A stretch of DNA of 64,000 nucleotides from Micromonospora sp. HNM0581 (GTDB lineage: Bacteria > Actinomycetota > Actinomycetes > Mycobacteriales > Micromonosporaceae): the NCBI RefSeq assembly GCF_012726175.1, contig NZ_JAASAD010000001.1, forward strand, positions 248,001 to 312,000, given 5' to 3'. The position numbers and the translations under genes were made by a program. The notes under the pieces were generated by a model. That model was given only the letters and a program-made list of their open reading frames with translations, did no database searches and was not told the DNA's origin. Positions 5,128 through 19,519 of this stretch are shown here, in pieces (the first letter of the stretch is position 1; each line of letters starts with the position of its first letter).

Positions 5128-5829
5128 TCAACCAGCCGGGCGTTCCCAGTCGACGGTGGGCAGGCCCGCGTCGGCGAGCGCCTTGTTGGCCGCGCTGAAC
5201 GGGCGACTGCCGAGGAAACCGCGAGGATTCATCGGGCTGGGATGACCGGCCTCAAGGACCACATGCTGCGGACTGCCGACCAGCGCCGCCTTCTTCCGGG
5301 CATAACCACCCCAGAGCAGGAACACCACCCGTGACTCCAGCGCGTCGAGTGCCCGGATGGTCGCGTCGGTGAACTCCTCCCAGCCCTGGTTGGCGTGCGA
5401 CCCGGGCGAACCCTGCCGCACGGTCAGCACCGAGTTGAGCAACAGCACACCCTGCGCCGCCCAGCCGGCGAGGTTACCGCTGCGCGGCTTCGGCACGCCC
5501 AGATCCTCGCCCAGTTCCTTGAAGACGTTACGCAACGAGGGTGGCACGGCCACCCCCTCCCGCACGCTGAAGCTCAACCCGTGGGCCTGGCCGACCCGGT
5601 GGTAGGGGTCCTGGCCGAGAATCAGCACCCGGCAGGCCGACGGCGGGCACAGCCGGTAGGCCGTGAAGAGGTCCGCCACCGGCGGGAAGACCGTGGCGGT
5701 GGCGTACTCCCGGGCGACGAACTCGCTCAACGCAGCCGTACGGGCCGCGTCGAGATGAGGGCTGAGCACCGCCCGCCACTCGTCGGGAAGCAGCGCCAGC
5801 AGGTCGAGGGCGGGGGTGTCGTCGGGCAT
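5128..5829 (-). CDS. ung: uracil-DNA glycosylase, family 1
   Basis: Excises uracil from DNA. The 233-residue protein carries the catalytic motif GQDPYH (Asp74) and the C-terminal HPSP loop (in LEAGHPSPMNPRGFLGS). I chose ATG 5829 because a GAGAGG ribosome site lies correctly upstream; a TTG two codons earlier is less likely. It stands between tsaE and tsaB in a run otherwise devoted to tRNA modification and cell-wall genes, which is an insertion relative to the Streptomyces order. Confidence 0.96.
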   Translation of the reverse strand: MPDDTPALDLLALLPDEWRAVLSPHLDAARTAALSEFVAREYATATVFPPVADLFTAYRLCPPSACRVLILGQDPYHRVGQAHGLSFSVREGVAVPPSLRNVFKELGEDLGVPKPRSGNLAGWAAQGVLLLNSVLTVRQGSPGSHANQGWEEFTDATIRALDALESRVVFLLWGGYARKKAALVGSPQHVVLEAGHPSPMNPRGFLGSRPFSAANKALADAGLPTVDWERPAG

Positions 5830-5893
5830 CGGCAACCTCTCACCGGTAGGAACGCACGTCTGCGGGCACTGTAGGCACCGGGTACGACAGGGC

Positions 5894-6382
5894 TCAGCCC
5901 CGGGCGGGGAAGGTCACCAGGCGCTGCGCCCAGTCACCACCGACCGCCTCCAGTTCCGCTGTCCGGGTGTCGTCGTCGTGCCGATGCAGGCGGATCCGCA
6001 GGTGGGCGTCGGCCAGGTGCTCGACAAGTCCTTCACCCCACTCGACCACCGTCACCGACTCGTCGACCGACGCGTCCAGGTCGAGGTCGTCGATCTCAGC
6101 GCGGGGATCTCCCGCGTCGCTCAACCGGTACGCGTCGGCGTGCACGAGCGCCACCGCCCGCCCACCGGTCGGATCCGGGCGGTGCAGACGGGCGATCACG
6201 AAAGTCGGCGAGGTGACGTCACCGAGCACCCCCAGGCCGGCGCCGATCCCCCGGGTCAGCGCGGTCTTGCCGGCACCCAGCGGTCCGGTGAGCAATACCA
6301 GGTCACCGGCGCGCAGCAGTCCGGCCAGCCGCTGCCCGAAGGCGTACGTCTCTGCCACCGTCGGCAGCACGAACCCGGTCAC
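5894..6382 (-). CDS. tsaE: tRNA threonylcarbamoyladenosine biosynthesis ATPase TsaE
   Basis: A 162-residue P-loop ATPase that drives turnover of the TsaBD complex. The Walker A motif GPLGAGKT is at residues 33-40, followed by the family SPTF motif (DVTSPTFVI), HADAYRL and VVEWGEG. The GTG start overlaps the hydrolase stop by four bases. About 45 residues after the VVEWGEG motif form the usual C-terminal beta part. Confidence 0.95.
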   Translation of the reverse strand: MTGFVLPTVAETYAFGQRLAGLLRAGDLVLLTGPLGAGKTALTRGIGAGLGVLGDVTSPTFVIARLHRPDPTGGRAVALVHADAYRLSDAGDPRAEIDDLDLDASVDESVTVVEWGEGLVEHLADAHLRIRLHRHDDDTRTAELEAVGGDWAQRLVTFPARG

Positions 6383-7482
6383 GACCCGTCCCGACCACAG
6401 CTGCCGAGGAAACGGAGCAACGCCGCATTCACCTCCTCGGCATGCTCGAGCATCACCACGTGGCCGCTGTCCGGAACCCTGACGAACTCGGCGTGCGGCA
6501 GCCGTCGGACGATTTCCTCCGAATGGGTCATCGGTGTGATCATGTCCTTGTCGCCGACGATCACCAGCACCGGCGTGTTGACCAACGCGGCGAGTGCCGG
6601 GAACCGGGAGTGGGACGCCAGGGTACGCAGGTAGCGGGTCACCGTGTCGGCGGAGGTGCGCGAGTTCATCCGCTCCACGTACGACACCAGCGCGGGGCTC
6701 GGACGAGTGGTGCCGAACCCGTAGCGGCGGGTCAGCAGCCAGGCCACGTTGCCTGTCGAGCGGCGAGCCCTGTCGATCACCGCCCCGCCGTAGCGGGTGA
6801 CGTTGCCGGCCATGTAGAGCACCGGCGCGCCCACCCGGCCCAGCAGGGCCGGCGCGACCAGTTTCGTCTCGGCAAGCAGCCCGCCCGACGTGGCCATCAG
6901 CACGGTCCCCACCACCCGGTCACCGAACATCTCCGGGTACAGCTCGGCCAGAGCCATGATGGTCATGCCACCCATCGAGTGACCAACGAGCACGAGTGGC
7001 CCCGCCGGGGCAGCCTCGTCGATCACCCGGCGGAGGGTGCGGCCGAGTGCGGTCAGGTCGTACTCGCCGCTCTCCAGTCGACCCGAACGGCCGTGTCCCG
7101 GCTGGTCGTACGCGACGATTCGGTGTTCACCGCGTTCGGCGAGCAGTTTGCGCTGGAAGTGGAAGGTGCCCATGTCGAGGCAGAAGCCGTGCACCAGCAG
7201 CACGGTCGGGTGGCGCTCGACCGGCCGGGTCGGCTCGACCACCTCGACGTGGATGTCGGTACCGTCGGGCATCTCCAGCAGGTACGCCTCGTCGTACCGC
7301 TGATCGCCGAAGGCCTCCTCGGCGTACGGGTCGGTGGGGTCCGCCTTGAGTCGACGGACCAGGGCGCGTTCCGTGGCGACGCCGGCGGCCAGTCCGGCGG
7401 CGGCCACCCCGAGCGCCGCACCGACCAGGCCGGCTGCCTTCCCGGCGGTGGTCCGGGGTCGTGGAACGTGCCAGCCGGTCAT
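6379..7482 (-). CDS. membrane-anchored alpha/beta hydrolase
   Basis: A 367-residue protein with an N-terminal hydrophobic segment (about 15-38), probably a membrane anchor, then an alpha/beta hydrolase fold. Visible features are the oxyanion strand LLVHGFCLD, the nucleophile elbow GHSMGG (Ser169), the acid in VIVGDKD, and His in DSGHVVMLEH. It overlaps alr and tsaE by four bases each, so it belongs to this operon. The alr-hydrolase-tsaE order is common in actinobacteria, but no substrate is known; a lipid or cell-envelope ester is an inference from the anchor and location. Confidence 0.9.
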   Translation of the reverse strand: MTGWHVPRPRTTAGKAAGLVGAALGVAAAGLAAGVATERALVRRLKADPTDPYAEEAFGDQRYDEAYLLEMPDGTDIHVEVVEPTRPVERHPTVLLVHGFCLDMGTFHFQRKLLAERGEHRIVAYDQPGHGRSGRLESGEYDLTALGRTLRRVIDEAAPAGPLVLVGHSMGGMTIMALAELYPEMFGDRVVGTVLMATSGGLLAETKLVAPALLGRVGAPVLYMAGNVTRYGGAVIDRARRSTGNVAWLLTRRYGFGTTRPSPALVSYVERMNSRTSADTVTRYLRTLASHSRFPALAALVNTPVLVIVGDKDMITPMTHSEEIVRRLPHAEFVRVPDSGHVVMLEHAEEVNAALLRFLGSCGRDGS

Positions 7483-8597
7483 GTCCGATCGCCGTCGTAG
7501 ACACGGGGCACCCGGGTGCTGCCGAACCGGGTGACGATCTCGTAGTTGATGGTGCCGACCGCCTCGGCCCAGTCGTCGGCCGTGGGTTCACCGTCGGATC
7601 CGCTGCCGAACAGGACCGCCACGTCGCCGGCAGCCACCGCGTCGTCACCGCAGTCCAGCACGAACTGGTCCATACAAACCCGACCGGAGATGGTCCGGCG
7701 AACCCCGCCGAGCTGCACCGGACCGGTGTTCGAGGCGTGCCGGGGCACCCCGTCGGCGTAGCCGAGCGGCACCACGGCCAGATTCGCCGCGCGCCCGGTG
7801 GTGTAGGTGTGGCCGTAGGAGACACCCGCGCCGGCCGGCACCCGCTTGGTGAGCATCACCCGGGCACGGGCGGTCATCGCCGGCCGCAACCCGTACCCCC
7901 CACCGGTCACCGGGGAGAGGCCGTAGACTGCCAGCCCCGGTCGGACCAGGTCGAAGTGGGTGTCCGGCCGGGTCAACGTGGCCGCCGAGTTGGCCAGGTG
8001 CCGGTAGCGTGGACGCAGCCCGGCGCGCTCGACCATGGCCAGGCCCTCGTGGAAGACCGCAACCTGCCGATCGGTGGTGGGGTGACCGGGCAGGTCCGCG
8101 TACACGAAGTGGCTCCACACCCCGACCACCTCGACCAGCCCGTCGGCCTGCGCCTTGGCTGCGGCGTCGAGCAGCGTCGGCCAGTCGGCGACCGTCGCGC
8201 CACCCCGGGACAACCCGGTGTCGATCTTGAGGTGGAGGCGAGCGGGACGCCCGGCGGTCCGGGCCGCCGCCACCATCTCGTCGAGCTGCGGCAGACTCGC
8301 CACCCCCAGATCGACGCCGGCGGTCACTCCGGCGTGCAGCGGCAGACCCGGCGCGAGCAGCCAGGCAAGCACCGGTGCGTCGATCCCGGCCGCACGTAAC
8401 GCCAACGCCTCGTCCAGCGTGCAGACGCCAAGCCAGTCCGCCCCCGCGTCGAGCGCGGCGCGGGCCGACGGAACCATCCCGTGCCCGTAGCCGTCGCCCT
8501 TCACCACCGCCATCAGCTCCGCGCTGGTGCCGGCCCGCAGCCGGTCCACGTTCTCCCGGATCGCATCCAGGTCGACACGTACCTCGGCCTGCCACAT
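7479..8597 (-). CDS. alr: alanine racemase
   Basis: PLP enzyme making D-alanine for peptidoglycan. The PLP lysine is Lys33 in AVVKGDGYGHG; the opposing catalytic tyrosine is Tyr261 in GVSYGHTY. The C-terminal beta domain carries GRVCMDQF. I chose ATG 8597 (372 residues) because a longer frame adds 12 residues before the conserved start WQAEVRVDLDAI. TAGGGT lies exactly seven bases upstream of this ATG, so the message may be leaderless. Confidence 0.97.
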   Translation of the reverse strand: MWQAEVRVDLDAIRENVDRLRAGTSAELMAVVKGDGYGHGMVPSARAALDAGADWLGVCTLDEALALRAAGIDAPVLAWLLAPGLPLHAGVTAGVDLGVASLPQLDEMVAAARTAGRPARLHLKIDTGLSRGGATVADWPTLLDAAAKAQADGLVEVVGVWSHFVYADLPGHPTTDRQVAVFHEGLAMVERAGLRPRYRHLANSAATLTRPDTHFDLVRPGLAVYGLSPVTGGGYGLRPAMTARARVMLTKRVPAGAGVSYGHTYTTGRAANLAVVPLGYADGVPRHASNTGPVQLGGVRRTISGRVCMDQFVLDCGDDAVAAGDVAVLFGSGSDGEPTADDWAEAVGTINYEIVTRFGSTRVPRVYDGDRT

Positions 8598-8610
8598 GTC
8601 CCCCACCCTA
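8598..8610 (-). promoter_or_regulatory. candidate -10 element, leaderless alr
   Basis: TAGGGT (8605-8610, minus strand) stands seven bases before the alr ATG, as expected for transcription starting at or next to the A of the start codon. Confidence 0.5.
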
Positions 8611-8639
8611 CTTTCCACGCTGATCAGCACCACGGGTAC

Positions 8640-10109
8640 TCAGGACAGCCGGGCCAGCACCGGACGCAGCGCGACGGCGACATCCCGCGCGGTCACCGGG
8701 CCGCCCCGGGCGGCTTCCCGTCCCGCCAGCCCGTGCAGGAACGCCGCCGCGGCGGCGGCCCGCTCGGCCGGCAACCCCGCCGCGAGCAACGAACCAAGCA
8801 GGCCGGCCAACACGTCGCCGGTGCCACCGGTGGCCAGCGCGGGGGTGCCGGTCGGATTGGCGTACGCCCGCCCGTCCGGCGTTCCGACCACCGTGCGATC
8901 CCCCTTGAGCAGCACCACCGCGTTCATCCAGGCGGCCAGTCGGAGCGTGGCGGCGACCCGGTCGGCACCCGGCTCCTCCCCGCAGAGGCGGGTGAACTCG
9001 CGATCGTGCGGGGTGACAACGATCGGCGCGTCCCGCTGGCGGAGCTGGTCGGCGAGCGAACCGTCGACGAGCAGCGTCAGCGCGTCGGCGTCCAGCACCA
9101 CCGGCACCGGCGCGGCGAGCACGGTCCGCAGTTCGGCGGCGGCCCGCTCGTCGGTTCCCAGTCCCGACCCGCACACCCAGGCCTGCACCCGGCCGGCATC
9201 GGAGACCCGGCCGCTGGCGATCACCGAGGGGTGCTCGCGAACCACCTCGTCCCGGGCGCCTCCGGCGTAGCGGACCAGCCCGGACGGGCCGGCGAGCGCC
9301 CCGCCGACGGAGAGCACCGCCGCGCCCGGATACGTCGCGGAGCCGGTGGCCACCCCGACCACACCACGGGAGTACTTCTCCGATCCGGGGCCGAGCACCG
9401 GCCACCAGTCGGTCACGTCGGACCTTTCCACGACGTGCAGCGCGGGGCTGCCGCGCAGCCACGGTGCCAGCCCGATGTCGACGAGTTCCACCTCGCCGGC
9501 CAGCGCGGCGGCGGGGCCGACCGCCAGGGCCGGCTTCAACGCGCCGAAGGCCACCGTCACGTCGGCGTGCACCGCGTTCGGGCGACCGGCCGGCGTCAAC
9601 GGCACCGCCCCGGTGTCCACCGCGACGCCGCTCGGCACGTCCACCGCCACCACCGTCGTCCGCTGGCCGTCGCGCCCCCGGCGCCGTAGCAGACTCCCCG
9701 CCGTCTGCTCCGCGGTCTCCCGGAGACCACCGTGGCCGCCGATACCGACGATCCCGTCGAGCACCACGTCGACCACGGCTGGCGGTCGCGGCACGACCCG
9801 TCCTCCGGCTGCGCGCAGCGCCGCCAGTCCTTCGCTGTGGGCCCGCCCCGGAGTGAGCAGCAGCGCCGACACATCGGCGCCGCGCCGGGCGAGCCGGGCG
9901 CCGGCGTACAGGGCGTCGCCGCCGTTGTCACCGGAGCCGACCAACAGCAGCACCGGTGCGGCGTACACCCCGCCCCGGTCGGCGAGCAGCAGCGCACAAC
10001 GGCGGGCCAGCCCGGCGGCGGCACGCTGCATCAGCGTGCCGGGCGGCACGGTGGCCATCAGGGCGGCCTCCGCCGCGCGGACGTCCGCGACCCGCCAGAC
10101 CGGTCTCAT
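8640..10109 (-). CDS. nnrE-nnrD: bifunctional NAD(P)H-hydrate epimerase / ADP-dependent dehydratase
   Basis: Repairs damaged NAD(P)H hydrates. The 489-residue fusion has the epimerase first (about 1-215, with LLVGSGDNGGDALYAGARL and VAVDVPSGV) and the kinase-like dehydratase second (about 225-489, with LDADALTLL, VVTPHDREF and the catalytic GGTGDVLAG). The stop lies 42 bases before the alr start on the same strand. An ACCCTA (TAGGGT on the minus strand, 10140-10145) may be the -10, giving a leader of about 24 bases. Confidence 0.96.
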   Translation of the reverse strand: MRPVWRVADVRAAEAALMATVPPGTLMQRAAAGLARRCALLLADRGGVYAAPVLLLVGSGDNGGDALYAGARLARRGADVSALLLTPGRAHSEGLAALRAAGGRVVPRPPAVVDVVLDGIVGIGGHGGLRETAEQTAGSLLRRRGRDGQRTTVVAVDVPSGVAVDTGAVPLTPAGRPNAVHADVTVAFGALKPALAVGPAAALAGEVELVDIGLAPWLRGSPALHVVERSDVTDWWPVLGPGSEKYSRGVVGVATGSATYPGAAVLSVGGALAGPSGLVRYAGGARDEVVREHPSVIASGRVSDAGRVQAWVCGSGLGTDERAAAELRTVLAAPVPVVLDADALTLLVDGSLADQLRQRDAPIVVTPHDREFTRLCGEEPGADRVAATLRLAAWMNAVVLLKGDRTVVGTPDGRAYANPTGTPALATGGTGDVLAGLLGSLLAAGLPAERAAAAAAFLHGLAGREAARGGPVTARDVAVALRPVLARLS

Positions 10110-10192
10110 CCCGCACCCCGCTCCCCGATCACCTGACCAACCCTACCGGCGTCGGGGCCGCAAGATAGCCGTCGTGTGCACGTCCGGCAATG

Positions 10193-10238
10193 CCTGTGGA
10201 CGAACCACGGGTACGCCCCCCGGGTGGTTGTCCACAGG
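10193..10238. promoter_or_regulatory. pair of inverted DnaA boxes in an inverted repeat
   Basis: TTGTCCACA at 10228-10236 is an exact match to the actinobacterial DnaA box, and TGTGGACGA at 10195-10203 is a second box (TCGTCCACA) on the other strand. They lie in an inverted repeat, CCTGTGGACgAACCAC (10193-10208) against GTGGTTGTCCACAGG (10224-10238), with one bulged base. The site lies between divergent nnrE-nnrD and the WXG-like gene. The box matches are direct observation; DnaA control or titration is inference. Confidence 0.55.
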
Positions 10239-10305
10239 GCACTGTCGTCGGCATCGTCACCGCCTAGCGTCGTCGGGGTCGTACTGATGCCACGCGGGAG
10301 GATCG

Positions 10306-10602
10306 ATGGCCGAGGAGACATTGGCAGTACGGCCGGAGCTTCTGCACCGGGTCGGGCGGTCGCTCGATGGCACCGGGCACCGGCTGGCACACGGTATGGC
10401 TGGTGGACGGGGGCTTGGCGCACCGGCCCGGGAATGGTCGACGGCGCGGGCGCTCGCCGGCCTGGAAGCGGCTGTGCACGCCTGGTCGGGTCGGCTCGCT
10501 GCGCGGGTCGCGGAGACCGGCGACGCGGTACGCGCCGCCGCCGCGGCGTACGAGTCGGTGGACGCCAGGGCCGCCGCCCGGCTCTCCGCCGTGCCCCGGT
10601 GA
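10306..10602 (+). CDS. WXG100-like small helical protein, candidate type VII substrate
   Basis: A 98-residue alpha-helical protein with no signal peptide. It has a central W-S-G turn (Trp60-Gly62, in HAWSGRL) and, 20 residues later, YESVD (Tyr82-Asp86), which fits the YxxxD/E export signal of type VII (ESX) substrates. Length and layout match WXG100 proteins. The ATG follows GGAGG. It overlaps the next gene by four bases (GTGA), so the two products are made together. No secretion machinery is encoded in the window, so export is inference. Confidence 0.75.
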   Translation: MAEETLAVRPELLHRVGRSLDGTGHRLAHGMAGGRGLGAPAREWSTARALAGLEAAVHAWSGRLAARVAETGDAVRAAAAAYESVDARAAARLSAVPR

Positions 10603-12197
10603 GCGCAGCAGGGGTGGTCGGGTACGCCCAGCTCTCCATGGCCGACCCGGCAGCCTGGCGGGCCACGGGTTCGGCCTGGGCGAGCCTGGCGGGGGTCGCC
10701 GAGCGGCGGTCCAGTGAACTCACCGACGATGCCGCCGACCTGCGCGCCGCGTGGTCCGGCAGTGCCGCCGAGTCCGCCGACTCTCGCCTGGCCCGGCTGC
10801 GCGGCGAGTTGGTCGCGCTGGTTCCGGCCGCGATCGAGACCGATCAGGTGCTCGCCGAGTTCGCCGCGCGGCTGGTGGCCGCGCGGGCCCAGCTGGCGGC
10901 GGCCGTGGCGTTGGCCGCCGCCACCGGAGTGCTCATCGACCGCCGGGGCGGCGTACGCGCCGATCCCGTCCGGATGCAGACCGACCGCACCGGGACTGCG
11001 GTGGCCCAGGTGGCCACCGCCCTGCGGGAGGCCCTCGTTCTGGCAGCCACGGCCGACGGGGAGGCCACGGCACGCCTCGCCCGTCTGGCTGAGGACGCCG
11101 GAACGGGCTGGACGGCCCAGCCACCGTCGTACCGTCCACCGGCACCAGGCGAGCCAGCCCTGGTGCGACGCTGGTGGGCCGGGCTCACGCCGGCTGAACG
11201 CCGCTGGCTGGTGGTGCACGAGCCGGAGCTGACCGGCCGACTCGACGGGATACCAGCCGATGCCCGTGACCAGGCCAACCGGCTGCTGCTCGTGGCCCGG
11301 CGAGCGGCACTGGTCGAACGGTGGGAGCAGTTGCTGGCCCGGGTGCCGCGGGGCCCGTTGGAGCTGGCCGGGCTACGTGGCGTCGAGGCCGCGATGTCCG
11401 GGCTGGACGCTCTCGTCGCCCGGCTGGAGTCGTCCCAGCAACCACGGGCCTACCTGCTGGGCCTGGACGTCGCAGAGGAGGGACGGGCCGTGGTGGCATT
11501 GGGTAACCCGGACCGGGCCACGGATGTCCTCACCTACGTGCCGGGAATGACGGCCGGGCTCGACGACGCCACCGGTGAGCTGGGCCGGGCGCATCGGGTG
11601 TTGACCCGTTGCGCGGAACTGGCCCCGGATGCGCAGACCTCGGCGGTGCTCTGGCTGGACTACGACGCCCCGGATTTCCTGCACGAGGCGGCCTGGGACG
11701 GGCAGGCTCGCGCAGCCGGGGAGTCACTGCACCGGTTCCAGGAGGGGTTACGGGCCACCCACGAGGGCCCGCCGGCCCGGCAGACCGTGCTCGGGCACAG
11801 CTACGGTTCGCTCGTGGTCGGGACCACCGCCCGCGATCACGGCCTCGCCGCCGACGCGCTGGTCTTCGTCGGCTCACCCGGGGTCGGCGTGGCGCACGCG
11901 GCCGACCTCGGTCTGCCGCCCGGGCAGGTGTGGGCCAGCAGCGCACCGGACGATGTCATCCGACTGACCCGCCCACCGGACGAACTCGCCCTGCGGGCGG
12001 CGCTCGGTGCCTCGCCGGTCGGCGCGATCGCCGGTTGGCTGGCCGGGCCGAGCGACGAACTGTGGTTCGGGCGCGACCCGGCCGGGCCGGGCTTCGGAGG
12101 TCGTACGTTCCCCAGCGGCCGGTACGGCCACACCGGCTACTGGCATCCGGACAATCCGGCGCTGGACGGCATGGCGCGGGTGGTTCTGGGTCGGTGA
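10599..12197 (+). CDS. WXG-like/DUF1023 alpha/beta hydrolase
   Basis: A 532-residue protein from a GTG that overlaps the WXG-like gene. The first ~170 residues are helical and carry their own W-S-G turn (Trp52-Gly54, in RAAWSGSA). A DUF1023 hydrolase follows (about 270-460) with the nucleophile elbow GHSYGS (Ser401) and a C-terminal His in FPSGRYGHTGYWHPDNPAL. DUF1023 proteins are actinobacterial enzymes of unknown substrate. The paired W-S-G proteins suggest a heterodimer, possibly secreted. The gene ends 11 bases before the convergent glmS stop with no terminator between them. Confidence 0.85.
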   Translation: MSAAGVVGYAQLSMADPAAWRATGSAWASLAGVAERRSSELTDDAADLRAAWSGSAAESADSRLARLRGELVALVPAAIETDQVLAEFAARLVAARAQLAAAVALAAATGVLIDRRGGVRADPVRMQTDRTGTAVAQVATALREALVLAATADGEATARLARLAEDAGTGWTAQPPSYRPPAPGEPALVRRWWAGLTPAERRWLVVHEPELTGRLDGIPADARDQANRLLLVARRAALVERWEQLLARVPRGPLELAGLRGVEAAMSGLDALVARLESSQQPRAYLLGLDVAEEGRAVVALGNPDRATDVLTYVPGMTAGLDDATGELGRAHRVLTRCAELAPDAQTSAVLWLDYDAPDFLHEAAWDGQARAAGESLHRFQEGLRATHEGPPARQTVLGHSYGSLVVGTTARDHGLAADALVFVGSPGVGVAHAADLGLPPGQVWASSAPDDVIRLTRPPDELALRAALGASPVGAIAGWLAGPSDELWFGRDPAGPGFGGRTFPSGRYGHTGYWHPDNPALDGMARVVLGR

Positions 12198-12208
12198 CCG
12201 GCTGCCGG

Positions 12209-14122
12209 CTACTCCACGGTGACGGACTTGGCGAGGTTACGTGGCTGGTCCACGTCGTGTCCCCGGGCGGCGGCGATCTCGGCCGCGAACACCTGCAACG
12301 GCACCGTCGTCACCAGCGGCGCGAGCAGCGTCGGCGTACGCGGCACGTGGATCAGGTGGTCGGCGTAGCGGACCACCGACTCGTCACCCTCCTCGGCGAT
12401 GACGATGGTGCGGGCGCCGCGTGCGCGTACCTCCTGGATGTTGGAGACGACCTTGTCGTGCAGCATGCCCCGGCCGACCGGAGAGGGGACGATGCAGATC
12501 ACCGGGGTGCCCTCGTCGATCAGCGAGATCGGGCCGTGCTTGAGCTCACCCGCGGCGAAGCCCTCGGCGTGCATGTACGCCAGCTCCTTGAGCTTCAGCG
12601 CACCCTCCAACGCCACCGGGTAGCCGACGTGCCGGCCGATGAACAACACCGTCGACTCGGTGCGCAGCTCGCGGGCCAGCTCGCGGACCGGCTCGATCCG
12701 CCCGAGCAGCTCGCGCAGCTTGTCCGGCACCTGGTGAAGCTGGTCGACCACGGCCGCCACCTCGTCGGCGTACTTGACGCCACGCACCTGCGCCAGGTGC
12801 AGGCCGATGAGGTAGCAGGCGATCACCTGGGTGAGGAACGCCTTGGTGGAGGCCACCGCGATCTCCGGGCCGCCGTGGGTGTAGAGCACCGCGTCGGACT
12901 CCCGGGGGATGGTGGAGCCGTTGGTGTTGCAGATGGCCAGCACCCGGGCCTTCTGCTCCTTGGCGTGCCGCAGCGCCATCAGGGTGTCCATGGTCTCGCC
13001 GGACTGCGAGATCACCACGATCAGGGTGGACCGGTCGAGCACCGGGTCGCGGTAGCGGAACTCGCTGGCCAGCTCCACCTCGCAGGGGATCCGCGTCCAG
13101 TGCTCGATGGCGTACTTGGCCACCATTCCGGCGTGGTAGGACGTCCCACAGGCGACGATGAAGATCTTGTCGACGTCGCGCAGATCCTGGTCGCTGAGCC
13201 GAACCTCGTCGAGCATGATCTCGCCGGTCTCGGTCAGCCGCCCGAGCAGCGTGTCGGCGACGGCCTGCGGCTGCTCCTCGATCTCCTTGAGCATGAACCA
13301 GTCGTAGCCGCCCTTCTCGGCGGCCGAGGAGTCCCAGTCGATGTGGAAGTCCTTGCCGGTGGCCGGCTGCCCCTCGAAGTCGGTGATCTCGATGCTCTCG
13401 CCGGTGATCAGCACGATCTGGTCCTGACCCAGCTCGACAGCGTCCCGGGTGTGCTCGATGAACGCGGCGACGTCGCTGGCGAGGTAGTTCTCCCCGTCGC
13501 CGCGACCGACGACCAGGGGTGAGTTTCGGCGCGCACCGACCACCGCGCCGGGAACCGCCGAGTCGACGGCGAGCAACGTGAAGGCGCCCTCCAGCCGTTG
13601 GCAGACCACCCGCATGGCCGCGGTCAGCAGCTGCGGCCCGTCCGGCTGGCCCGCCGCACGCAGGTCGGCCAGTGCCGCGGAGAGCAGGTGGGCGGCACAC
13701 TCGGTGTCGGTGTCGCTGGTGAAGGCGACGCCCTCCTCCTCCAGTTCGGCACGAAGTTTGGCGAAGTTCTCGATGATGCCGTTGTGGATCACCGCGACCC
13801 GCCCGTCGGGCGACAGGTGCGGATGGGCGTTGCGGTCCGTGGGGCCGCCGTGGGTGGCCCACCGGGTGTGTCCGATGCCCGTGGTGCCGTCGCCGATGCC
13901 GATCGGACTGGCGCCGCAGCCGGCCGGATCCTCGGCGGCCCGCTCGGAGAGCACCTTCTCCAGGTTTGCCAGCTTGCCGGCCTTCTTCTCGGTCAGCAGC
14001 TCCCCGTCGCAGACGACGGCGACCCCGGCCGAGTCGTAGCCGCGGTACTCCAGCCGCCGCAAGCCGTCGAGCACGATACCGAGCGCCGGTCGGGCACCGG
14101 CGTAACCCACGATTCCACACAT
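12209..14122 (-). CDS. glmS: glutamine-fructose-6-phosphate aminotransferase
   Basis: First step of UDP-GlcNAc synthesis. A 637-residue enzyme: N-terminal glutaminase with Cys2 as nucleophile (MCGIVGYAG), then two SIS isomerase domains (CGTSYHAG, SQSGETMDT, STKAFLTQ). The last residues DQPRNLAKSVTVE are the family's conserved tail. TAGGCT stands seven bases before the ATG, so the gene is probably leaderless. No glmS ribozyme is possible in such an arrangement and none is seen. Confidence 0.98.
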   Translation of the reverse strand: MCGIVGYAGARPALGIVLDGLRRLEYRGYDSAGVAVVCDGELLTEKKAGKLANLEKVLSERAAEDPAGCGASPIGIGDGTTGIGHTRWATHGGPTDRNAHPHLSPDGRVAVIHNGIIENFAKLRAELEEEGVAFTSDTDTECAAHLLSAALADLRAAGQPDGPQLLTAAMRVVCQRLEGAFTLLAVDSAVPGAVVGARRNSPLVVGRGDGENYLASDVAAFIEHTRDAVELGQDQIVLITGESIEITDFEGQPATGKDFHIDWDSSAAEKGGYDWFMLKEIEEQPQAVADTLLGRLTETGEIMLDEVRLSDQDLRDVDKIFIVACGTSYHAGMVAKYAIEHWTRIPCEVELASEFRYRDPVLDRSTLIVVISQSGETMDTLMALRHAKEQKARVLAICNTNGSTIPRESDAVLYTHGGPEIAVASTKAFLTQVIACYLIGLHLAQVRGVKYADEVAAVVDQLHQVPDKLRELLGRIEPVRELARELRTESTVLFIGRHVGYPVALEGALKLKELAYMHAEGFAAGELKHGPISLIDEGTPVICIVPSPVGRGMLHDKVVSNIQEVRARGARTIVIAEEGDESVVRYADHLIHVPRTPTLLAPLVTTVPLQVFAAEIAAARGHDVDQPRNLAKSVTVE

Positions 14123-14135
14123 GGGTCGCAGCCTA
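14123..14135 (-). promoter_or_regulatory. candidate -10 element, leaderless glmS
   Basis: TAGGCT (14130-14135, minus strand) lies seven bases upstream of the glmS ATG. It is back to back with the similar element of the divergent aminotransferase gene at 14267-14272. Confidence 0.5.
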
Positions 14136-14266
14136 ACCCAGCATCACTCACGACGCCTGCTCGAAAGCGGGGTAAACAATCAGTCCACCTGATCGATTCG
14201 GTGATGGCGATCATCGGCACGACAAAGCACGCACCCGAGTGCGAGCGGGTCGGAAGATCGCACCCG

Positions 14267-14279
14267 TAACCTGTCGAAC
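14267..14279 (+). promoter_or_regulatory. candidate -10 element, leaderless aminotransferase
   Basis: TAACCT (14267-14272) is followed by seven bases and the GTG at 14280. No Shine-Dalgarno sequence is present in between, which supports leaderless translation. Confidence 0.5.
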
Positions 14280-15500
14280 GTGACGAGCAGCGATGTCGAC
14301 CCGTTGGTGACCCGGATGCGCCCGTTCGGGACGACGATCTTCGCCGAGATGTCATCCCTCGCGGTACGTACCGGCGCGGTGAATCTCGGGCAGGGGTTCC
14401 CGGACACCGACGGCCCGCCCGAGATGCTCACCGCCGCGGCGCAGGCTCTGGCCGCCGGGCGCAACCAGTACCCACCCGGCCCCGGCATCCCCGAACTACG
14501 GGCAGCGCTGGCGGCACACCAACGCCGCTTCTGGGGTCTGGAGTACGACCCGGACAGCGAGGTGGTCGTGACCGCCGGTGCCACCGAGGCCGTCACCGCA
14601 GCCATGCTCGCCCTCTGCGAACCCGGCGACGAGGTGGTCTGCTTCGAGCCGTACTACGACTCGTACGCCGCCTCGATCGCCCTGGCCGGCGCAGTCCGGC
14701 GACCGGTGACGCTACGCCCCGGCTCCGACGGGCGGTACGCGTACGACCCGGACGAGCTGCGGGCCGCCTTCGGTGCGCGTACCCGGCTGGTGCTGCTGAA
14801 CTCACCGCACAACCCGACCGGCAAGGTGTTCACCCCGGACGAGCTGACCTTTGTCGCGCAGCTGTGCCAGGAGCACGACGCGTACGCGATCACCGACGAG
14901 GTGTATGAGCATCTGGCCTTCACCGACGCCGTCAGCGGGCACGTACCGCTGGCCACGCTGCCCGGAATGCGCGAGCGCACGCTGCGGATCTCCTCGGCCG
15001 GCAAAACCTTCTCCTGCACCGGCTGGAAGGTGGGTTGGGCCAGCGGGCCGGCGCAGCTGGTGTCGGCGGTACTGCGAGTCAAGCAGTTCCTCACCTTCGT
15101 CAACGCCGCACCCCTGCAACCGGCGGTGGCGGTGGCGCTCGCCCTACCCGACGACTACTTCACCGCCTTCCGGGCCGGTCTGCAGACCCGTCGTGACCAA
15201 CTGGTCGGCGGTTTGACCGCAGCCGGGTTCGACGTGCTCAACCCGGAGGGCACGTACTTCGTCACCGCCGACATCACCGCCCTCGGTGGCACCGACGGCG
15301 TCGACTTCTGTCGTGCCCTACCTGAGCTGGCCGGCGTGGTCGCAGTACCCACCCAGGTCTTCTACGATGATCCCGCGGCCGGTCGCCGACTGATCCGCTT
15401 CGCCTTCTGCAAACGCCCCGACGTGCTGACCGAAGCGGTGAACCGCCTGCACCGGCTGCCCGATTTCCGCCGGTCGACGCCACCGCGGTCCGAAGTTTAG
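14280..15500 (+). CDS. PLP-dependent aminotransferase, DapC/methionine aminotransferase type
   Basis: A 406-residue class I/II fold-type I aminotransferase. Motifs: NLGQGFPDTDGP near the start, NQYPPGPG, NSPHNPTG, ITDEVYEHL, and the PLP lysine in SSAGKTFSCTGW. It resembles the mycobacterial protein assigned as N-succinyldiaminopimelate aminotransferase (DapC, Rv0858c) along its whole length, but this group also includes kynurenine/methionine aminotransferases, so the substrate is unsettled. It stands alone, divergent from glmS. Confidence 0.88.
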   Translation: MTSSDVDPLVTRMRPFGTTIFAEMSSLAVRTGAVNLGQGFPDTDGPPEMLTAAAQALAAGRNQYPPGPGIPELRAALAAHQRRFWGLEYDPDSEVVVTAGATEAVTAAMLALCEPGDEVVCFEPYYDSYAASIALAGAVRRPVTLRPGSDGRYAYDPDELRAAFGARTRLVLLNSPHNPTGKVFTPDELTFVAQLCQEHDAYAITDEVYEHLAFTDAVSGHVPLATLPGMRERTLRISSAGKTFSCTGWKVGWASGPAQLVSAVLRVKQFLTFVNAAPLQPAVAVALALPDDYFTAFRAGLQTRRDQLVGGLTAAGFDVLNPEGTYFVTADITALGGTDGVDFCRALPELAGVVAVPTQVFYDDPAAGRRLIRFAFCKRPDVLTEAVNRLHRLPDFRRSTPPRSEV

Positions 15501-15527
15501 GCCGGTACGCACAGCCTCCGTCTTCGC

Positions 15528-16880
15528 TCAGGCGGGGCTGGCGGTTCGAACGTGGGCGGCGATGCGCTCGGCTACCTCCCGGGCCGTCTGCTCGGTGGCG
15601 GCCTCGACCATCACCCGGACCAGTGGCTCGGTGCCGGACGGGCGCAGCAGCACGCGACCAGCCTCGCCCAGCTCGGCCTCGGCCCGCTCGACCTCGGCGC
15701 GGACCACCGGTGCGGCGGCGCCGACGGTACGGTCCCCGACCGGCACGTTGATCAGAACCTGCGGCAGCCTGGTCACCACGCTGGCGAGGTCCGCCAGGGG
15801 GCGGCCGGTGGCCGCGATCCGAGCCATCAGGTGCAGCCCGGTGAGGACCCCGTCGCCGGTGGTCGCGTACGCCGGCATGACGATGTGTCCGCTCTGCTCG
15901 CCGCCCAGGGCGAGCCCGGAGGCGCGCAGTTCCTCGAGCACGTACCGGTCACCGACCTTGGTCTCGACCAGCCGGATGCCCTCGGCGGACATGGCCAGAC
16001 GCAGACCGAGGTTGCTCATCACGGTGGCGACCAGGGTGTCACCGGTCAGTGTGCCGGCCTCCCGCATGGCCAGCGCCAGGATCGCCATGACCTGATCGCC
16101 GTCGACCTCCTCACCGTCGGCGCTCACCGCCACGCACCTGTCGGCGTCACCGTCGTGCGCGATGCCGAGATGCGCCCCGTGCTCCACCACCGCCTGACGC
16201 AGTGCCTCGATGTGGTTGGAGCCGCACTCGTCGTTGATGTTGAGCCCGTCCGGCTCGGCGTTGATCGCGATGACCTCGGCACCGGCCTCCCGGTAGACCG
16301 CCGGGGCCACCTCGGCGGCGGCGCCGTTGGCGCAGTCGACCACGACTTTGATCCCGTCCAGGCGGTGCGGCGCGGTCCCGGCGACGTGCTGCACATAGTG
16401 ACTCGCGCCGTCGAGCAGGTCGTGCACCCGGCCCACCCCCGCGCCGATTGGGCGCTCCCAGGCGGTGGTGGCGTTGGCCTCGATGGCCGCCTCGATCCGC
16501 ATTTCGATCTCGTCGGGCAGCTTGTGCCCACCCGCGGCGAACAACTTGATGCCGTTGTCTGGCATCGGGTTGTGCGAGGCCGACAGCATGACCCCGAGGT
16601 CCGCCTTGGCCTCGGCAGTGAGGAACGCCACCGCCGGGGTGGGTAGCACACCCACCCGGATCACCGTCGCGCCGGCGCTGGTCAGCCCGGCCACGACGGC
16701 GGCCTCGAGCATCTCGCCGCTGGCTCGGGTGTCCCGCCCCACCACTGCCAGAGGCGCGCGGCCACGGTCCGACTCGGCGAGGGTGTGTGCCGCCGCGATG
16801 GCCACCGAGAGCGCCAACTCCGGCGTCAGGTCGGCGTTCGCCCGCCCGCGTACACCGTCCGTGCCGAACAACCGGCCCAT
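15528..16880 (-). CDS. glmM: phosphoglucosamine mutase
   Basis: Converts glucosamine-6-P to glucosamine-1-P for UDP-GlcNAc. The 450-residue enzyme has the phosphoserine loop [12 protein letters not shown] (Ser102), the metal loop DGDADR, the sugar loop GEQSGH and the phosphate site RPSGTEP. I chose ATG 16880 ([11 protein letters not shown]) because GGAGGT stands eight bases upstream; the open frame extends 57 bases further without homology. A strong hairpin separates it from rpsI upstream. Confidence 0.97.
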
Positions 16881-16941
16881 ACCCACCAACCTCCGATGAA
16901 CTGCCGATACAGGAAACGTGCCTTGTCGTGAGGCCACGGAA

Positions 16942-16984
16942 ACGGCCGGTCCACCTCCCCGTCGAGGGGAGGCGGACCGGCCGT
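16942..16984. terminator. strong hairpin between rpsI and glmM
   Basis: Arms ACGGCCGGTCC-a-CCTCCCC and GGGGAGG-c-GGACCGGCCGT with a five-base loop GTCGA: 18 paired positions and one mismatch. It lies 29 bases beyond the rpsI stop and 61 bases before the glmM start. There is no U-tract, as is usual in this group, so it may terminate fully or partly. Confidence 0.75.
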
Positions 16985-17013
16985 CCGTCAGAAGTACAAG
17001 GTGCGGCTGGAGA

Positions 17014-17478
17014 TCAGCGCTTCGAGTACTGGGGAGCCTTACGGGCCTTCTTGAGGCCGTACTTCTTGCTCTCCTTGACCCGGGCGTCCCGGGTCAGGAA
17101 ACCGGCCTTCTTCAGGGCCGGCCGGTCGTCGGGCTCGCTGACGATCAGCGCCCGGGCGATGGCCAGCCGCAGTGCGCCGGCCTGGCCGGTGGTGCCACCA
17201 CCGCGCAGGTTGGCGATGACATCGAACGCCTCGGGCTTCTCGGCGGTGACCAGCGGATCCTTGATCAGCTGCTGGTGCACCTTGCTCGGGAAGTACGCCT
17301 CCAGGTCACGCCCGTTGCAGGTGATCTTGCCGGTACCCGGCACGATGCGCACCCGGACGATGGCCTCCTTGCGCCGACCCACGGTCTGGATCGGGCGGTC
17401 ACCACGAGGCGCGCGCGCGACGGGCGCCGGCGCCTCGGTGGCCTCGGGGGCGACCTCGGTGACGGTGATGTCGGTCAT
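17014..17478 (-). CDS. rpsI: 30S ribosomal protein S9
   Basis: A 154-residue S9 with a variable acidic/alanine-rich N-terminal extension (about 1-28) before the core [13 protein letters not shown], then [19 protein letters not shown] and the essential C-terminal [12 protein letters not shown] that reaches the P-site tRNA. ATG 17478 was chosen over an upstream codon because GAAGGAAG precedes it. It lies 20 bases after rplM, its usual partner. Confidence 0.98.
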
Positions 17479-17498
17479 GCTGCTTCCTTCGCCCGCGC

Positions 17499-17942
17499 TC
17501 ACTGCGCGATCTGCTTGATCTCGAACGGCACCGGCTGCTGCGCGGTGTGCGGGTGCTCGGCACCGGCGTAGACCTTCAGCTTCTTGATGAGCTGACGGCC
17601 GAGCTTGTTGTGCGGGAGCATCCCCTTCACCGCCAGCTCGATGGCCCGCTCGGGGCGCTTGGCCAACAGCTCCTCGTATCCGACCTGCTTGAGGCCACCC
17701 GGGTAACCGGAGTGCCGGTAAGCGATCTTCTGCTGGCGCTTGTTGCCGGTCAGCGCGACCTTGCCCGCGTTCACGACGACGACGAAGTCGCCCGTGTCGA
17801 CGTGCGGCGCGAAAGTCGGCTTGTGCTTGCCCCGCAGCAGCGTGGCGGCGTGGGTGGCCAGGCGGCCCAGCACGACATCAGAGGCGTCGATGACGTGCCA
17901 CTGACGCTCGATCTCACCCGGCTTCGGGCTGTACGTACGCAC
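17499..17942 (-). CDS. rplM: 50S ribosomal protein L13
   Basis: A 147-residue L13 starting [20 protein letters not shown], with the signature [19 protein letters not shown]. The GTG at 17942 is preceded by AAGGTAGA; the open frame runs 111 bases further upstream but without L13 similarity. Transcribed with rpsI. In Streptomyces rplM follows truA closely; here truA is about 33 kb away. Confidence 0.98.
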
Positions 17943-18151
17943 AGGTCTACCTTGTCTCGTCGTCGGTCTGGGGTCGCGCGCCGAGGTGACCAGGACAACC
18001 CAGCCGGACCAGCGCGCACGAACGACCAAGCGTACCTCAGGCGGCACGCCCACAGATGTCGTACAACAGCAGGCAACGATACCCGCAGCCCCACCGGCCG
18101 GTCAAAACGGGGTCCGATCGGCGGGGCGCACGGAGGCCGGCATGACGGCCG

Positions 18152-19519
18152 TCACACCCCGGCGCGCGCCATCTGACTGCCGGGACGCAGGTACGCGACC
18201 CAGGTGATCACGAGCAGCGCCAGGAAGAATCCGACGTAGAAGCGCAGCGCCGGCTGGATGCCACCGTAGGTCGACCGGGCCCAGGCGTAACAGATCGGCA
18301 CCAGGAAGCCACCGAAGGCACCGACCGCGGAGATTATGCCCAGGGCACCGGCGGCCTGCCGGCGCATCGCCAGCATCACCTCCGGCGTGCCGCCCCTTTC
18401 CTCGCCCTTGATCTGGAAGATCCGGCTGATCATCCGGTAGGTCGAACCGTTACCGACGCCGGTAGCCACGAAGAGCAGCAGGAACGCACCGAAGAACAGA
18501 CCCATGTCGCGCTGCTCGACCGACCAGAGCGCGCCCAGGGCACCGACCGCCATCAGCACGAAACTCGCCACCGTGACCCGGGCCCCGCCGACGAGGTCGG
18601 AGAGACGGCCACCGAACGGCCGGCAGAGCGAACCCACCCCCGCACCGAGGAACGCCCAGGCCAGCGCGACGTCCGGCCGCCCGAAAACCGAGTTCAGCAG
18701 GGTGGGAAAGGCCGCCGAGTAGCCGATGAACGAGCCGAAGGTGCCGATGTACAGCAGCGACATGATCCAGGTGTCGTGGTGCCGCAGCGACGACCAGACC
18801 GGCCGCACGTCGGCCTTCGCCTCGACCAGGTTGTCCATGAACAGGTACGCACAGACCGCCGCGATCACCGCCAACGGGATGTACATCAGGCCGGCTCTGG
18901 CCAGCGCGAGTCCACCGCCCAACACGATCACCTGGGGCACCACGAACTGCACGACGGCCACCCCGATGTTGCCACCGGCGGCGTTGAGCCCCAACGCCCA
19001 CCCTTTCTCCCGCTCGGGATAGAAGAACGAGATGTTGGCCATGCTCGAGGCGAAGTTGCCCCCGCCGAACCCGGCCGTGGCAGCGATCAGCAACAGCGGC
19101 ACGAAGCCGATCTCCGGATGCTCGACCGCCCAGGCCAGGCCCGCGCAGGGCACGATCAGCAACAGCGCGGAGATGACCGTCCAGTTACGACCGCCGAAGA
19201 TCGGTACGGCGAAGGTGTACGGCAGCCGCAGCAGGGCGCCGACACCGCTCGGCACGGCGGTCAGCCAGAGCGCCTGACTGGTGGTGAGCCCCCAGCCGGC
19301 GTCGCCGAGGCGGACGACGACGATGCTCCAGAGCAGCCACACCGAGAAGCCGATGTGCTCGGCGAAGATCGACCAGATGAGGTTGCGTTTGGCGACGCCG
19401 CGGCCTGTCCGCAGCCAGAAGCCCGGATCCTCCGGTGCCCAGTGCCCGATCCACCGCCCCGGTCGGCGGTCCAGGCTCTCTTCTTCGCTTACCGTCGGCT
19501 GCTCGCTCGTGGTGGTCAT
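18152..19519 (-). CDS. narK: nitrate/nitrite transporter, NarK type
   Basis: A 455-residue major facilitator with about 12 membrane segments. It carries both nitrate signature regions, GFGGGNFASSMANISFFYP (about 149-167) and GVGNGSTYRMISR, plus the substrate-binding arginines in GALLRLPYTF and LCRPFGGRLSD. Divergent from nasC, so it supplies the nitrate reductase and/or exports nitrite. TAGCTT lies seven bases before the ATG (leaderless layout), and a weak GlnR-like pair (GTTAC-n6-GTTCG, 19543-19558 on +) overlaps its expected -35 region. Confidence 0.95.
   Translation of the reverse strand: MTTTSEQPTVSEEESLDRRPGRWIGHWAPEDPGFWLRTGRGVAKRNLIWSIFAEHIGFSVWLLWSIVVVRLGDAGWGLTTSQALWLTAVPSGVGALLRLPYTFAVPIFGGRNWTVISALLLIVPCAGLAWAVEHPEIGFVPLLLIAATAGFGGGNFASSMANISFFYPEREKGWALGLNAAGGNIGVAVVQFVVPQVIVLGGGLALARAGLMYIPLAVIAAVCAYLFMDNLVEAKADVRPVWSSLRHHDTWIMSLLYIGTFGSFIGYSAAFPTLLNSVFGRPDVALAWAFLGAGVGSLCRPFGGRLSDLVGGARVTVASFVLMAVGALGALWSVEQRDMGLFFGAFLLLFVATGVGNGSTYRMISRIFQIKGEERGGTPEVMLAMRRQAAGALGIISAVGAFGGFLVPICYAWARSTYGGIQPALRFYVGFFLALLVITWVAYLRPGSQMARAGV

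What the first reader, a model, noticed from the sequence alone, without database searches (positions are those of the whole stretch)
10306..12197. Overlapping WXG100-like and WXG/DUF1023 hydrolase genes: a candidate type VII secreted enzyme pair
The 98-residue protein has a Trp-Ser-Gly turn (60-62) and YESVD (82-86), fitting the YxxxD/E ESX export signal. The 532-residue partner, translated through a GTGA overlap, has its own Trp-Ser-Gly turn at 52-54 in a helical N-terminus and a DUF1023 hydrolase with GHSYGS (Ser401). This looks like a chaperone-effector heterodimer, set between cell-wall genes (nnrED/alr and glmS). The motifs are seen; secretion and any cell-envelope substrate are inferred.
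Basis: partly seen in the sequence, partly recalled or inferred. Interest (0 to 1): 0.62.

Follow-up and report, generated by a model that had tools for sequence, protein, structure and literature searches.

The report
Candidate type VII-exported lipase-like enzyme pair
Two overlapping genes beside cell-wall genes in Micromonospora look like a small export partner and a lipase-like enzyme for the type VII secretion machine; relatives elsewhere often carry a third, lipoprotein gene that this core-genome version lacks, which may mean a former antibacterial weapon turned into a resident enzyme.

Summary
ORF A (10306-10602, 98 aa) and ORF B (10599-12197, 532 aa) overlap by GTGA, and the motifs are present. 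One correction: A's Trp-Ser-Gly (60-62) lies inside helix 2; the turn is at about 34-44, beside invariant W44. A's Y82xxxD86 and B's W52-x-G54 and Ser401-Asp452-His511 are invariant in 30 of 30 orthologues. A is EspC/WXG100-like; B is a WXG hairpin joined to a DUF1023 (Abhydrolase_8) hydrolase. The pair lies between nnrED and glmS in many Micromonosporaceae. The ESX link rests on relatives: some unlinked copies of B lie beside EccC or mycosin, more often than expected, and an EspC-like gene precedes 23 of 44 distant B genes. Behind 24 of those 44 stands a lipoprotein gene (4 of 105 control ORFs), as in M. abscessus prophage toxin cassettes. No such gene was found in 88 of 88 glmS/nnrED-linked loci. 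Best reading: a T7SS/ESX-exported envelope esterase or lipase pair, vertically inherited, derived from an effector plus immunity-lipoprotein cassette. Export, dimer and substrate are untested. A new variant of a known kind, of moderate interest.

The parts
10296..10301 (+). Shine-Dalgarno-like GGGAGG ahead of ORF A
   Evidence: read directly from the sequence
10306..10602 (+). ORF A, 98-aa EspC/WXG100-like helical hairpin, proposed export partner of B
   Evidence: PF10824 E 6.8e-4, 20.5 bits, below the 23.5 cut-off; model with two helices 10-33 and 45-94, pLDDT 89.6; Foldseek rows EsxA, EsxB, PE25, E 0.06 and above
10435..10437 (+). codon of Trp44 of A, at the hairpin turn, invariant in 30 of 30 orthologues
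10483..10491 (+). WSG 60-62 of A: inside helix 2, not a turn; W in 30 of 30, G in 19 of 30
10549..10563 (+). YESVD (82-86) of A, YxxxD/E export-signal motif
   Evidence: Y82 and D86 invariant in 30 of 30; motif as described in PMC3935865 (passages)
10599..12197 (+). ORF B, 532-aa WXG hairpin + helical linker + DUF1023 alpha/beta hydrolase
   Evidence: PF06259 117 bits; model pLDDT 88.4, pTM 0.87
10599..10602 (+). GTGA start/stop overlap of A and B (likely translational coupling)
   Evidence: in-frame overlap start in 30 of 30 loci
10623..11105 (+). N-terminal helical domain of B (residues 9-169): hairpin 17-51 / WSG turn / 55-109, small beta hairpin 111-121, helix 128-169
   Evidence: weak PF06013 match 15-87, E 0.014
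10752..10760 (+). WSG 52-54 of B, at the predicted turn; W and G invariant in 30 of 30
11466..11969 (+). Abhydrolase_8 core (residues 290-457)
11793..11810 (+). GHSYGS nucleophile elbow, Ser401
   Evidence: invariant in 30 of 30; S401 invariant in 49 aligned B homologues
11952..11954 (+). Asp452 codon, probable catalytic acid
   Evidence: invariant in 49 aligned homologues and 30 of 30
12129..12131 (+). His511 codon, probable catalytic base
   Evidence: invariant in 49 aligned homologues and 30 of 30
8640..10109 (-). flanking nnrED (NAD(P)HX epimerase/dehydratase), divergent
   Evidence: PF01256, PF03853
12209..14122 (-). flanking glmS, convergent; its end lies 11 bases past B, so there is no room for the lipoprotein gene of related cassettes

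Best explanation
A and B are a bicistronic type VII (ESX) substrate pair. A is an EspC/WXG100-like hairpin that carries the YxxxD export motif. B carries the WXG hairpin that would dock with A and a DUF1023 serine hydrolase (Ser401-Asp452-His511) as cargo. The two would be made together by translational coupling, form a hairpin-to-hairpin heterodimer, and leave the cell through one of the genome's ESX machines, which are encoded on other contigs. Outside the membrane B would cleave an ester in lipid or an envelope polymer. The glmS-linked pair descends from a broader actinobacterial cassette (EspC-like partner, WXG-hydrolase effector, lipoprotein that probably restrains the hydrolase). It has no lipoprotein gene beside it and is inherited vertically in most of the genus, so it is more likely a resident envelope-remodelling esterase or lipase than a toxin. 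Shown: genes, motifs, conservation, predicted single-chain folds, linkage of some relatives to ESX genes and to the lipoprotein family, absence of that gene beside B here. Inferred: dimer, export, substrate, change of role.
For: Conserved A-B pair with the key residues invariant. Predicted A fold resembles EsxA, EsxB and PE25; B has a WXG hairpin plus a lipase/cutinase-like hydrolase domain (Z about 13.5-15 over residues 280-532). 36 of 45 A homologues (26 of them Micromonospora orthologues) match EspC (PF10824) at E<=0.1; 11 of 49 B homologues match WXG100, 5 PPE, 1 EspB_PPE, 1 T7SS_signal at E<=0.01. In nine Micromonosporaceae genomes with two or more B matches, 6 of 33 listed B genes lie within 5 kb of EccC (0.27 expected); four of the nine had been picked after a mycosin neighbour was seen, and the other five alone give 3 of 13 against 0.09 expected. 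Four unlinked copies, one clade, are followed by a mycosin over its curated cut-off. In G178 an A-B-lipoprotein set follows directly on an EccC match, its A found only weakly (E 0.002). The window's genome has 3 full EccC, 4 mycosins over cut-off and 5 WXG100 over cut-off. Lipoprotein gene behind 24 of 44 distant B genes against 4 of 105 control ORFs; C-family neighbour in 0 of 88 linked loci. The linked B form one side of a branch (33 of 33 rows, support 81; 98 for 31 of them).
Against: No secretion, binding or activity data. The pair is not near an ESX locus in its own genome. A's EspC match and B's WXG matches stay below curated cut-offs. The heterodimer could not be modelled. Most unlinked B copies are not near EccC: 27 of 33 are farther than 5 kb or on another contig. 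Co-occurrence of PF06259 with EccC (EccC in 32 of 45 genomes with a strong PF06259 match, in 15 of 103 without) is not corrected for phylogeny; 13 of 45 show no EccC at E<=1e-100, and some PF06259 proteins have no WXG part. An A-like gene was not found by the profile for 21 of 44 distant B genes and for 2 of 17 glmS-linked ones; no control for A was run, and 9 of the 23 finds had been built into the profile (they were found first with the narrower one). In 2 of 61 genus members (G015, G043) the best match is only an unlinked cassette, so the linked pair is dispensable or missing there. Of 66 unlinked rows 30 also show neither C-family nor lipobox neighbour, and C presence needs 17 changes on the tree, so its absence alone is weak proof of a changed role. 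The lipoprotein's inhibitory role is inferred.
Confidence: 0.55

Rival explanations
1. B is still an antibacterial type VII lipase toxin, like TslA of Staphylococcus aureus; self-protection comes from elsewhere, or the enzyme is harmless until delivered.
For: Closest arrangement found in print is a T7SS lipase with an immunity lipoprotein (PMC10730906, passages). M. abscessus prophage genes 9-10-11 (WXG protein, polymorphic toxin matching B residues 185-532 at 33%, LppA lipoprotein) have the same order and such sets are described as PT-Imm/PEST cassettes (PMC8092301, PMC10654092, passages). A C-like gene elsewhere in the window's genome is not excluded: the C profile gave only short or weak matches there (best E 0.005, mostly the signal-peptide part), but its power is poor: of the 8 C genes known in G178, G125 and G082 it found 2 in full and 1 in part.
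Against: No C-family neighbour in 88 of 88 linked loci. One PF06259 gene in this genome, one clade of linked copies and purifying selection on B are unlike a polymorphic toxin.
Confidence: 0.22
2. B is an intracellular esterase whose helical N-terminus and small partner A merely resemble ESX proteins; no export occurs.
For: No ESX genes in the window by the profiles used; sub-cut-off WXG and EspC scores; glmS and nnrED products are cytosolic enzymes (general knowledge).
Against: Invariant YxxxD and WXG, EsxA/PE25-like fold of A, EccC- and mycosin-adjacent relatives, lipoprotein partners in relatives.
Confidence: 0.13
3. A and B are a decaying remnant of a lost effector cassette.
For: The third gene is missing beside B; 2 of 61 genus members show no linked pair; two of eight close pairs give dN/dS 0.77-0.87 for A.
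Against: Open frames, invariant triad and dN/dS 0.16-0.35 for B across close pairs; retention at the same place in other genera of the family.
Confidence: 0.04

Closest known systems
PT-Imm / PEST cassettes of Mycobacterium abscessus prophages
   Same: Small WXG partner, WXG-headed large protein, lipoprotein in that order; prophi102-2 gene 10 aligns to B residues 185-532 (33%); gene order
   Different: Mobile, prophage-borne and with an immunity gene; the window pair is chromosomal, at one place across the family, with no third gene. DUF1023 has no occurrence in PMC8092301 ('duf' 0) and 'hydrolase' none in PMC10654092
TslA-TilA-TlaA lipase toxin of Staphylococcus aureus (PMC10730906, passages)
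   Same: T7SS substrate with Ser-Asp-His lipase domain, small helical partners, and an immunity lipoprotein in its locus
   Different: Reverse domain order, Bacillota T7SS, two partners; no sequence relation tested here; the window pair has no lipoprotein gene
EspC / CFP-10 / PE25 class partners (PF10824, PF06013, PE)
   Same: About 100 aa, helical hairpin, YxxxD/E at the end of helix 2, bicistronic
   Different: A has no WXG at the turn and scores below the PF10824 cut-off
Abhydrolase_8 / DUF1023 (PF06259)
   Same: B is well over the cut-off and has the full triad
   Different: No activity for the family is given in the passages seen
Tox-ABhydrolase3 of Zhang et al. 2012 (PMC3482391, passages)
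   Same: alpha/beta hydrolase toxin class with a GHSxG motif, listed with T7SS (WXG) delivery
   Different: Whether it equals DUF1023 was not stated in the passages seen and not tested

Membership tests
WXG100/EspC-type ESX substrate partner (ORF A) | about 100-residue two-helix hairpin | tested here: met
   (predicted)
WXG100/EspC-type ESX substrate partner (ORF A) | WXG at the hairpin turn | tested here: not met
   W44 near the turn has no +2 Gly (WST); WSG60-62 is mid-helix
WXG100/EspC-type ESX substrate partner (ORF A) | YxxxD/E near the end of helix 2 | tested here: met
   Y82 and D86 in 30 of 30
WXG100/EspC-type ESX substrate partner (ORF A) | score over the curated Pfam cut-off | tested here: not met
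   PF10824 20.5 against 23.5 bits
WXG100/EspC-type ESX substrate partner (ORF A) | ESX-dependent export | not testable with these tools
   needs secretome of an EccC mutant
WXG-headed ESX effector (ORF B) | N-terminal helix-WXG-helix | tested here: met
   turn at 52-54, W and G in 30 of 30
WXG-headed ESX effector (ORF B) | score over the WXG100 cut-off | tested here: not met
   16.1 against 27.3 bits; 16.1 against 44.85
WXG-headed ESX effector (ORF B) | relatives encoded in ESX loci | tested here: met
   for some: 6 of 33 within 5 kb of EccC, 3 of 13 in the five genomes not pre-selected; four next to mycosin
Abhydrolase_8 / DUF1023 | profile score over cut-off | tested here: met
   117.4 against 20.5 bits
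Abhydrolase_8 / DUF1023 | Ser-Asp-His triad | tested here: met
   S401, D452, H511 invariant in 49 aligned sequences; roles inferred from the fold
PT-Imm / PEST cassette | immunity gene directly behind the large protein | tested here: not met
   no C-family hit in 88 of 88 linked loci, ORFs starting -60 to +150 bases from B's stop
PT-Imm / PEST cassette | located in a prophage | tested here: not met
   between nnrED and glmS, with household neighbours
PT-Imm / PEST cassette | toxicity relieved by the third gene | not testable with these tools
   bench assay
TslA-like T7SS lipase toxin | lipase domain first, helical export domain last | tested here: not met
   B has the helical domain first

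The most novel reading that the evidence does not exclude
The glmS-linked pair is an antibacterial-type ESX lipase effector that lost its immunity lipoprotein once, in an ancestor of many Micromonosporaceae, and became a housekeeping enzyme exported by type VII secretion to remodel the envelope of bacteria without a mycomembrane; more broadly, DUF1023 is the catalytic head of a large, uncharacterised actinobacterial ESX effector-lipoprotein cassette family.
Probability: 0.35. Interest if true: 0.68.

Novelty: new variant of a known kind. Interest (0 to 1): 0.5.

Why it matters
DUF1023 (PF06259) has no stated function in the passages found here. Linking it to EspC-like partners, ESX machinery and a dedicated lipoprotein family gives a testable function for many actinobacterial genes. 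The glmS-linked form would be a clean case for asking what ESX secretion does in ordinary soil actinomycetes, where its role is largely open (my judgement).

Tried and rejected
Sequence search of the PDB with A and B found no credible relative (best E 0.46 and 1.3). NCBIfam found nothing for A. Paper searches: DUF1023 with WXG100 0 papers; DUF1023 4 papers, of which I saw passages of two and only the listing of the other two; related accessions (listing only); Rv3439c 5 papers (listing only), tried on a recalled hunch that this glmS-region gene of M. tuberculosis is a relative; the relation was not tested and is not used. Searches gave background, including TslA; no title or abstract start in their listings tells of an EspC-DUF1023-lipoprotein cassette. 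PMC4791881 (passages) reports ESX-4 clusters in Micromonosporales.

Looking for glmS or nnrED in the 40 loci L065-L104 (44 B copies, mostly about 3 kb on either side) gave none, so the cell-wall neighbourhood is not general. The idea that A's WSG60-62 is the hairpin turn was rejected. The idea that the lipoprotein gene merely moved elsewhere in the genome was not supported but not excluded, the profile being weak. Foldseek's top rows for B had low whole-chain TM (0.18-0.30) because only residues about 280-532 align. The N-terminal domain alone was not folded, so no claim is made that it has or lacks a known fold. Pfam put no family on the lipoproteins beyond weak single matches (12 scanned, best E 0.008). 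Of the 8 C-family rows without a lipobox, L104 and L173 have short signal peptides by eye, leaving 6. One search set its 15 rows out of L006-L035 to 'no C' without scanning and flagged one linked row by a lipobox; one search then scanned 30 + 40 + 18 loci: no C-family hit, and the one lipobox-like ORF (L166) overlaps glmS on the other strand. The 88 loci overlap in species, and in one (L155) nnrED but not glmS was seen. The count uses the 33 B matches that one search listed for nine genomes (one more of G344 was not listed).
Full report
What is there. ORF A (10306-10602, 98 aa) and ORF B (10599-12197, 532 aa) lie on the + strand and overlap by GTGA. B's frame stays open upstream to 10176, but the GTG at 10599 is supported: an in-frame [AGT]TGA start at A's stop, open through B, exists in 30 of 30 loci. 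On the left lie nnrED, alr, an alpha/beta hydrolase and the tsaE-UDG-tsaB-rimI-tsaD genes on the - strand; on the right glmS (-), an aminotransferase (+), glmM, rpsI, rplM (-) (gene names are the usual ones for those Pfam families). glmS ends 11 bases past B. The window's genome belongs with Micromonospora (its nearest named relatives are Micromonospora, Verrucosispora and one unclassified Micromonosporaceae). It holds three full EccC, five WXG100 over cut-off and four mycosins over cut-off, none in this window, and one PF06259 gene.

Reality of the pair. Of 101 genomes searched with B, 82 have a match, among them all 61 of the genus. In 2 of those 61 (G015, G043) the best match is about 50% identical and is an unlinked cassette (L096, L097). 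The 30 best loci all have A, B and glmS in place, and 29 have nnrED. Of 40 named loci, all 40 have glmS, 29 have A and 28 nnrED; the 11 without A have B at or within 190 bases of a contig end. In the wider family 91 of 121 genomes have a match at E<=1e-20 and 30 have none. Of 42 B genes in 40 loci fetched from that list, 17 have glmS in the stretch; 15 of the 17 have a detectable A and none a lipobox ORF behind (in L161 and L162 glmS is near but not directly behind B, and in L156, L157 and L165 it starts 600-930 bases on). Within the 30 closest loci A has 13 invariant residues of 98 (V8, L13, L20, W44, L50, E54, W60, L64, Y82, D86, R88, R92, R98), and B 169 (one of them the start Met, set by the script), among them W52, G54, S401, D452, H511. 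dN/dS for B is 0.16-0.35 over 8 pairs; for A it is 0.23-0.40 in 6 pairs and 0.77-0.87 in 2 pairs with low dS.

Anatomy. AlphaFold gives A as helices 10-33 and 45-94 (pLDDT 89.6, pTM 0.74). Foldseek's best rows are EsxA, EsxB and other WXG100 chains, with PE25 below, at probabilities near 1 but E values of 0.06 and above. Y82-x3-D86-x2-A89-x3-L93 fits the extended HxxxD/ExxhxxxH pattern of Poulsen et al. 2014 (PMC3935865, passages). B (pLDDT 88.4, pTM 0.87) has helix 17-51, the WSG turn 52-54, helix 55-109, a small beta hairpin 111-121, helix 128-169, a helical linker, and a hydrolase domain from 284. That domain aligns with Bacillus lipase A, cutinases and carboxylesterases (Z 13.5-15.3, rmsd 2.6-4.1 A over 165-197 residues in most of the 50 rows), a shared fold only. 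Across 49 B homologues S401, D452 and H511 are among 15 invariant residues. Neither N-terminus looks like a Sec signal (by eye).

Link to ESX. Scans of the aligned homologues matched EspC in 36 of 45 A (26 of the 45 are Micromonospora orthologues) and, of 49 B, WXG100 in 11, PPE in 5, EspB_PPE in 1 and T7SS_signal in 1. In 148 class genomes 45 have a strong PF06259 match (E<1e-10), 47 have EccC, 32 both (Fisher 3e-11, not corrected for phylogeny; 13 have PF06259 without EccC). In nine Micromonosporaceae genomes with two or more B matches, 6 of 33 listed B genes lie within 5 kb of an EccC where 0.27 are expected, and 7 within 10 kb (0.48 expected); 26 are farther or on another contig. Four of the nine (G248, G286, G323, G245) were picked after I had seen a mycosin beside B; the other five alone give 3 of 13 against 0.09 expected. 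Four unlinked copies (L180, L183, L185, L186), which form one clade and may be one event, are followed by a protein over the cut-off of T7SS mycosin. In G178 an A-like gene (weak, E 0.002), B and a lipoprotein gene follow directly on an EccC match (L068). On one plasmid a B relative follows a gene annotated 'type VII secretion target'.

A third gene. Behind 24 of 44 distant B genes (L065-L104) stands a 163-223 aa lipoprotein gene, with a 4-base overlap in 14 of the 24, by a lipobox rule that fires behind 4 of 105 usable control ORFs (of 136) from the same loci. An A-like gene was found by profile before 23 of the 44; 10 of these had been found with the narrower first profile and 9 of those went into the second, so they match it by construction; no control was run for A. 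Twelve of the 24 lipoproteins align with three invariant cysteines (C23 lipidation, C71, C157). A profile of them also finds relatives without a signal peptide behind some B genes (six after discounting two with short signals). A partner found on either side of the membrane fits a B-binding restraint better than a transport lipoprotein; this is inference. M. abscessus prophage prophi102-2 shows the same order: WXG motif protein, polymorphic toxin protein (33% to B 185-532), LppA lipoprotein. PMC8092301 and PMC10654092 describe such PT-Imm or PEST cassettes, some with lipoprotein immunity and a PE25/PPE41-like predicted dimer (passages). S. aureus TslA shows that a T7SS lipase can be held by an immunity lipoprotein, TilA (PMC10730906, passages).

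What differs here. None of 88 linked loci (87 with glmS seen, L155 with nnrED only) has a C-family ORF starting within -60 to +150 bases of B's stop; one lipobox-like ORF overlaps glmS on the other strand. On a 99-row tree of the hydrolase part the 33 linked rows are one side of a branch (support 81; 98 for 31 of them), next to unlinked cassettes of the same family (midpoint root, quick method). Overall 32 of 66 unlinked rows have a C-family neighbour, 4 a lipobox only and 30 neither, and C presence needs 17 changes, so loss of C is common and is not by itself proof of a new role. In the window's own genome the C profile finds only weak, mostly signal-peptide matches (best E 0.005); its power is poor, since of 8 C genes known in G178, G125 and G082 it found 2 in full, 1 in part and missed 5, while finding two new full ones.

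Conclusion. The pair is very probably a type VII substrate partner and effector (my estimate 0.75). That it is a resident envelope esterase or lipase derived from an effector-immunity cassette is the best single reading (0.55 for the whole chain). The toxin rival stays open (0.22).

Noticed in passing
L069 (G092:C1:4620000-4639500), ORF at 5803-18682 of the reverse strand: A 4292-aa open frame with five stretches matching B's hydrolase part lies about 8-15 kb from an EccC and follows a weakly EspC-like ORF (E 0.001): a multi-hydrolase giant.
   Followed up: partly
L085 and L087 (G086, G095): Besides a full cassette, a second B copy of 365-371 aa without the WXG part stands beside a C-family protein without a signal peptide: a cytosolic-looking enzyme and partner.
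   Followed up: partly
L184 (G286:C1:588000-596000): A divergent short B copy is followed by an alanine racemase gene (TIGR00492 over cut-off), echoing the alr neighbourhood of the window.
   Followed up: no
L066 (G178:C1:3397000-3407500): Two near-identical B-lipoprotein units in tandem; the A-like gene was found only before the first.
   Followed up: no
G178:C1:2217097-2218103 (within L067): Two C-family lipoprotein-like frames stand one after the other behind a B gene, as if the partner gene had been duplicated.
   Followed up: no
window 6379-7482 (-): Another alpha/beta hydrolase gene (Abhydrolase_1) sits between alr and tsaE, near B; a different Pfam family.
   Followed up: no
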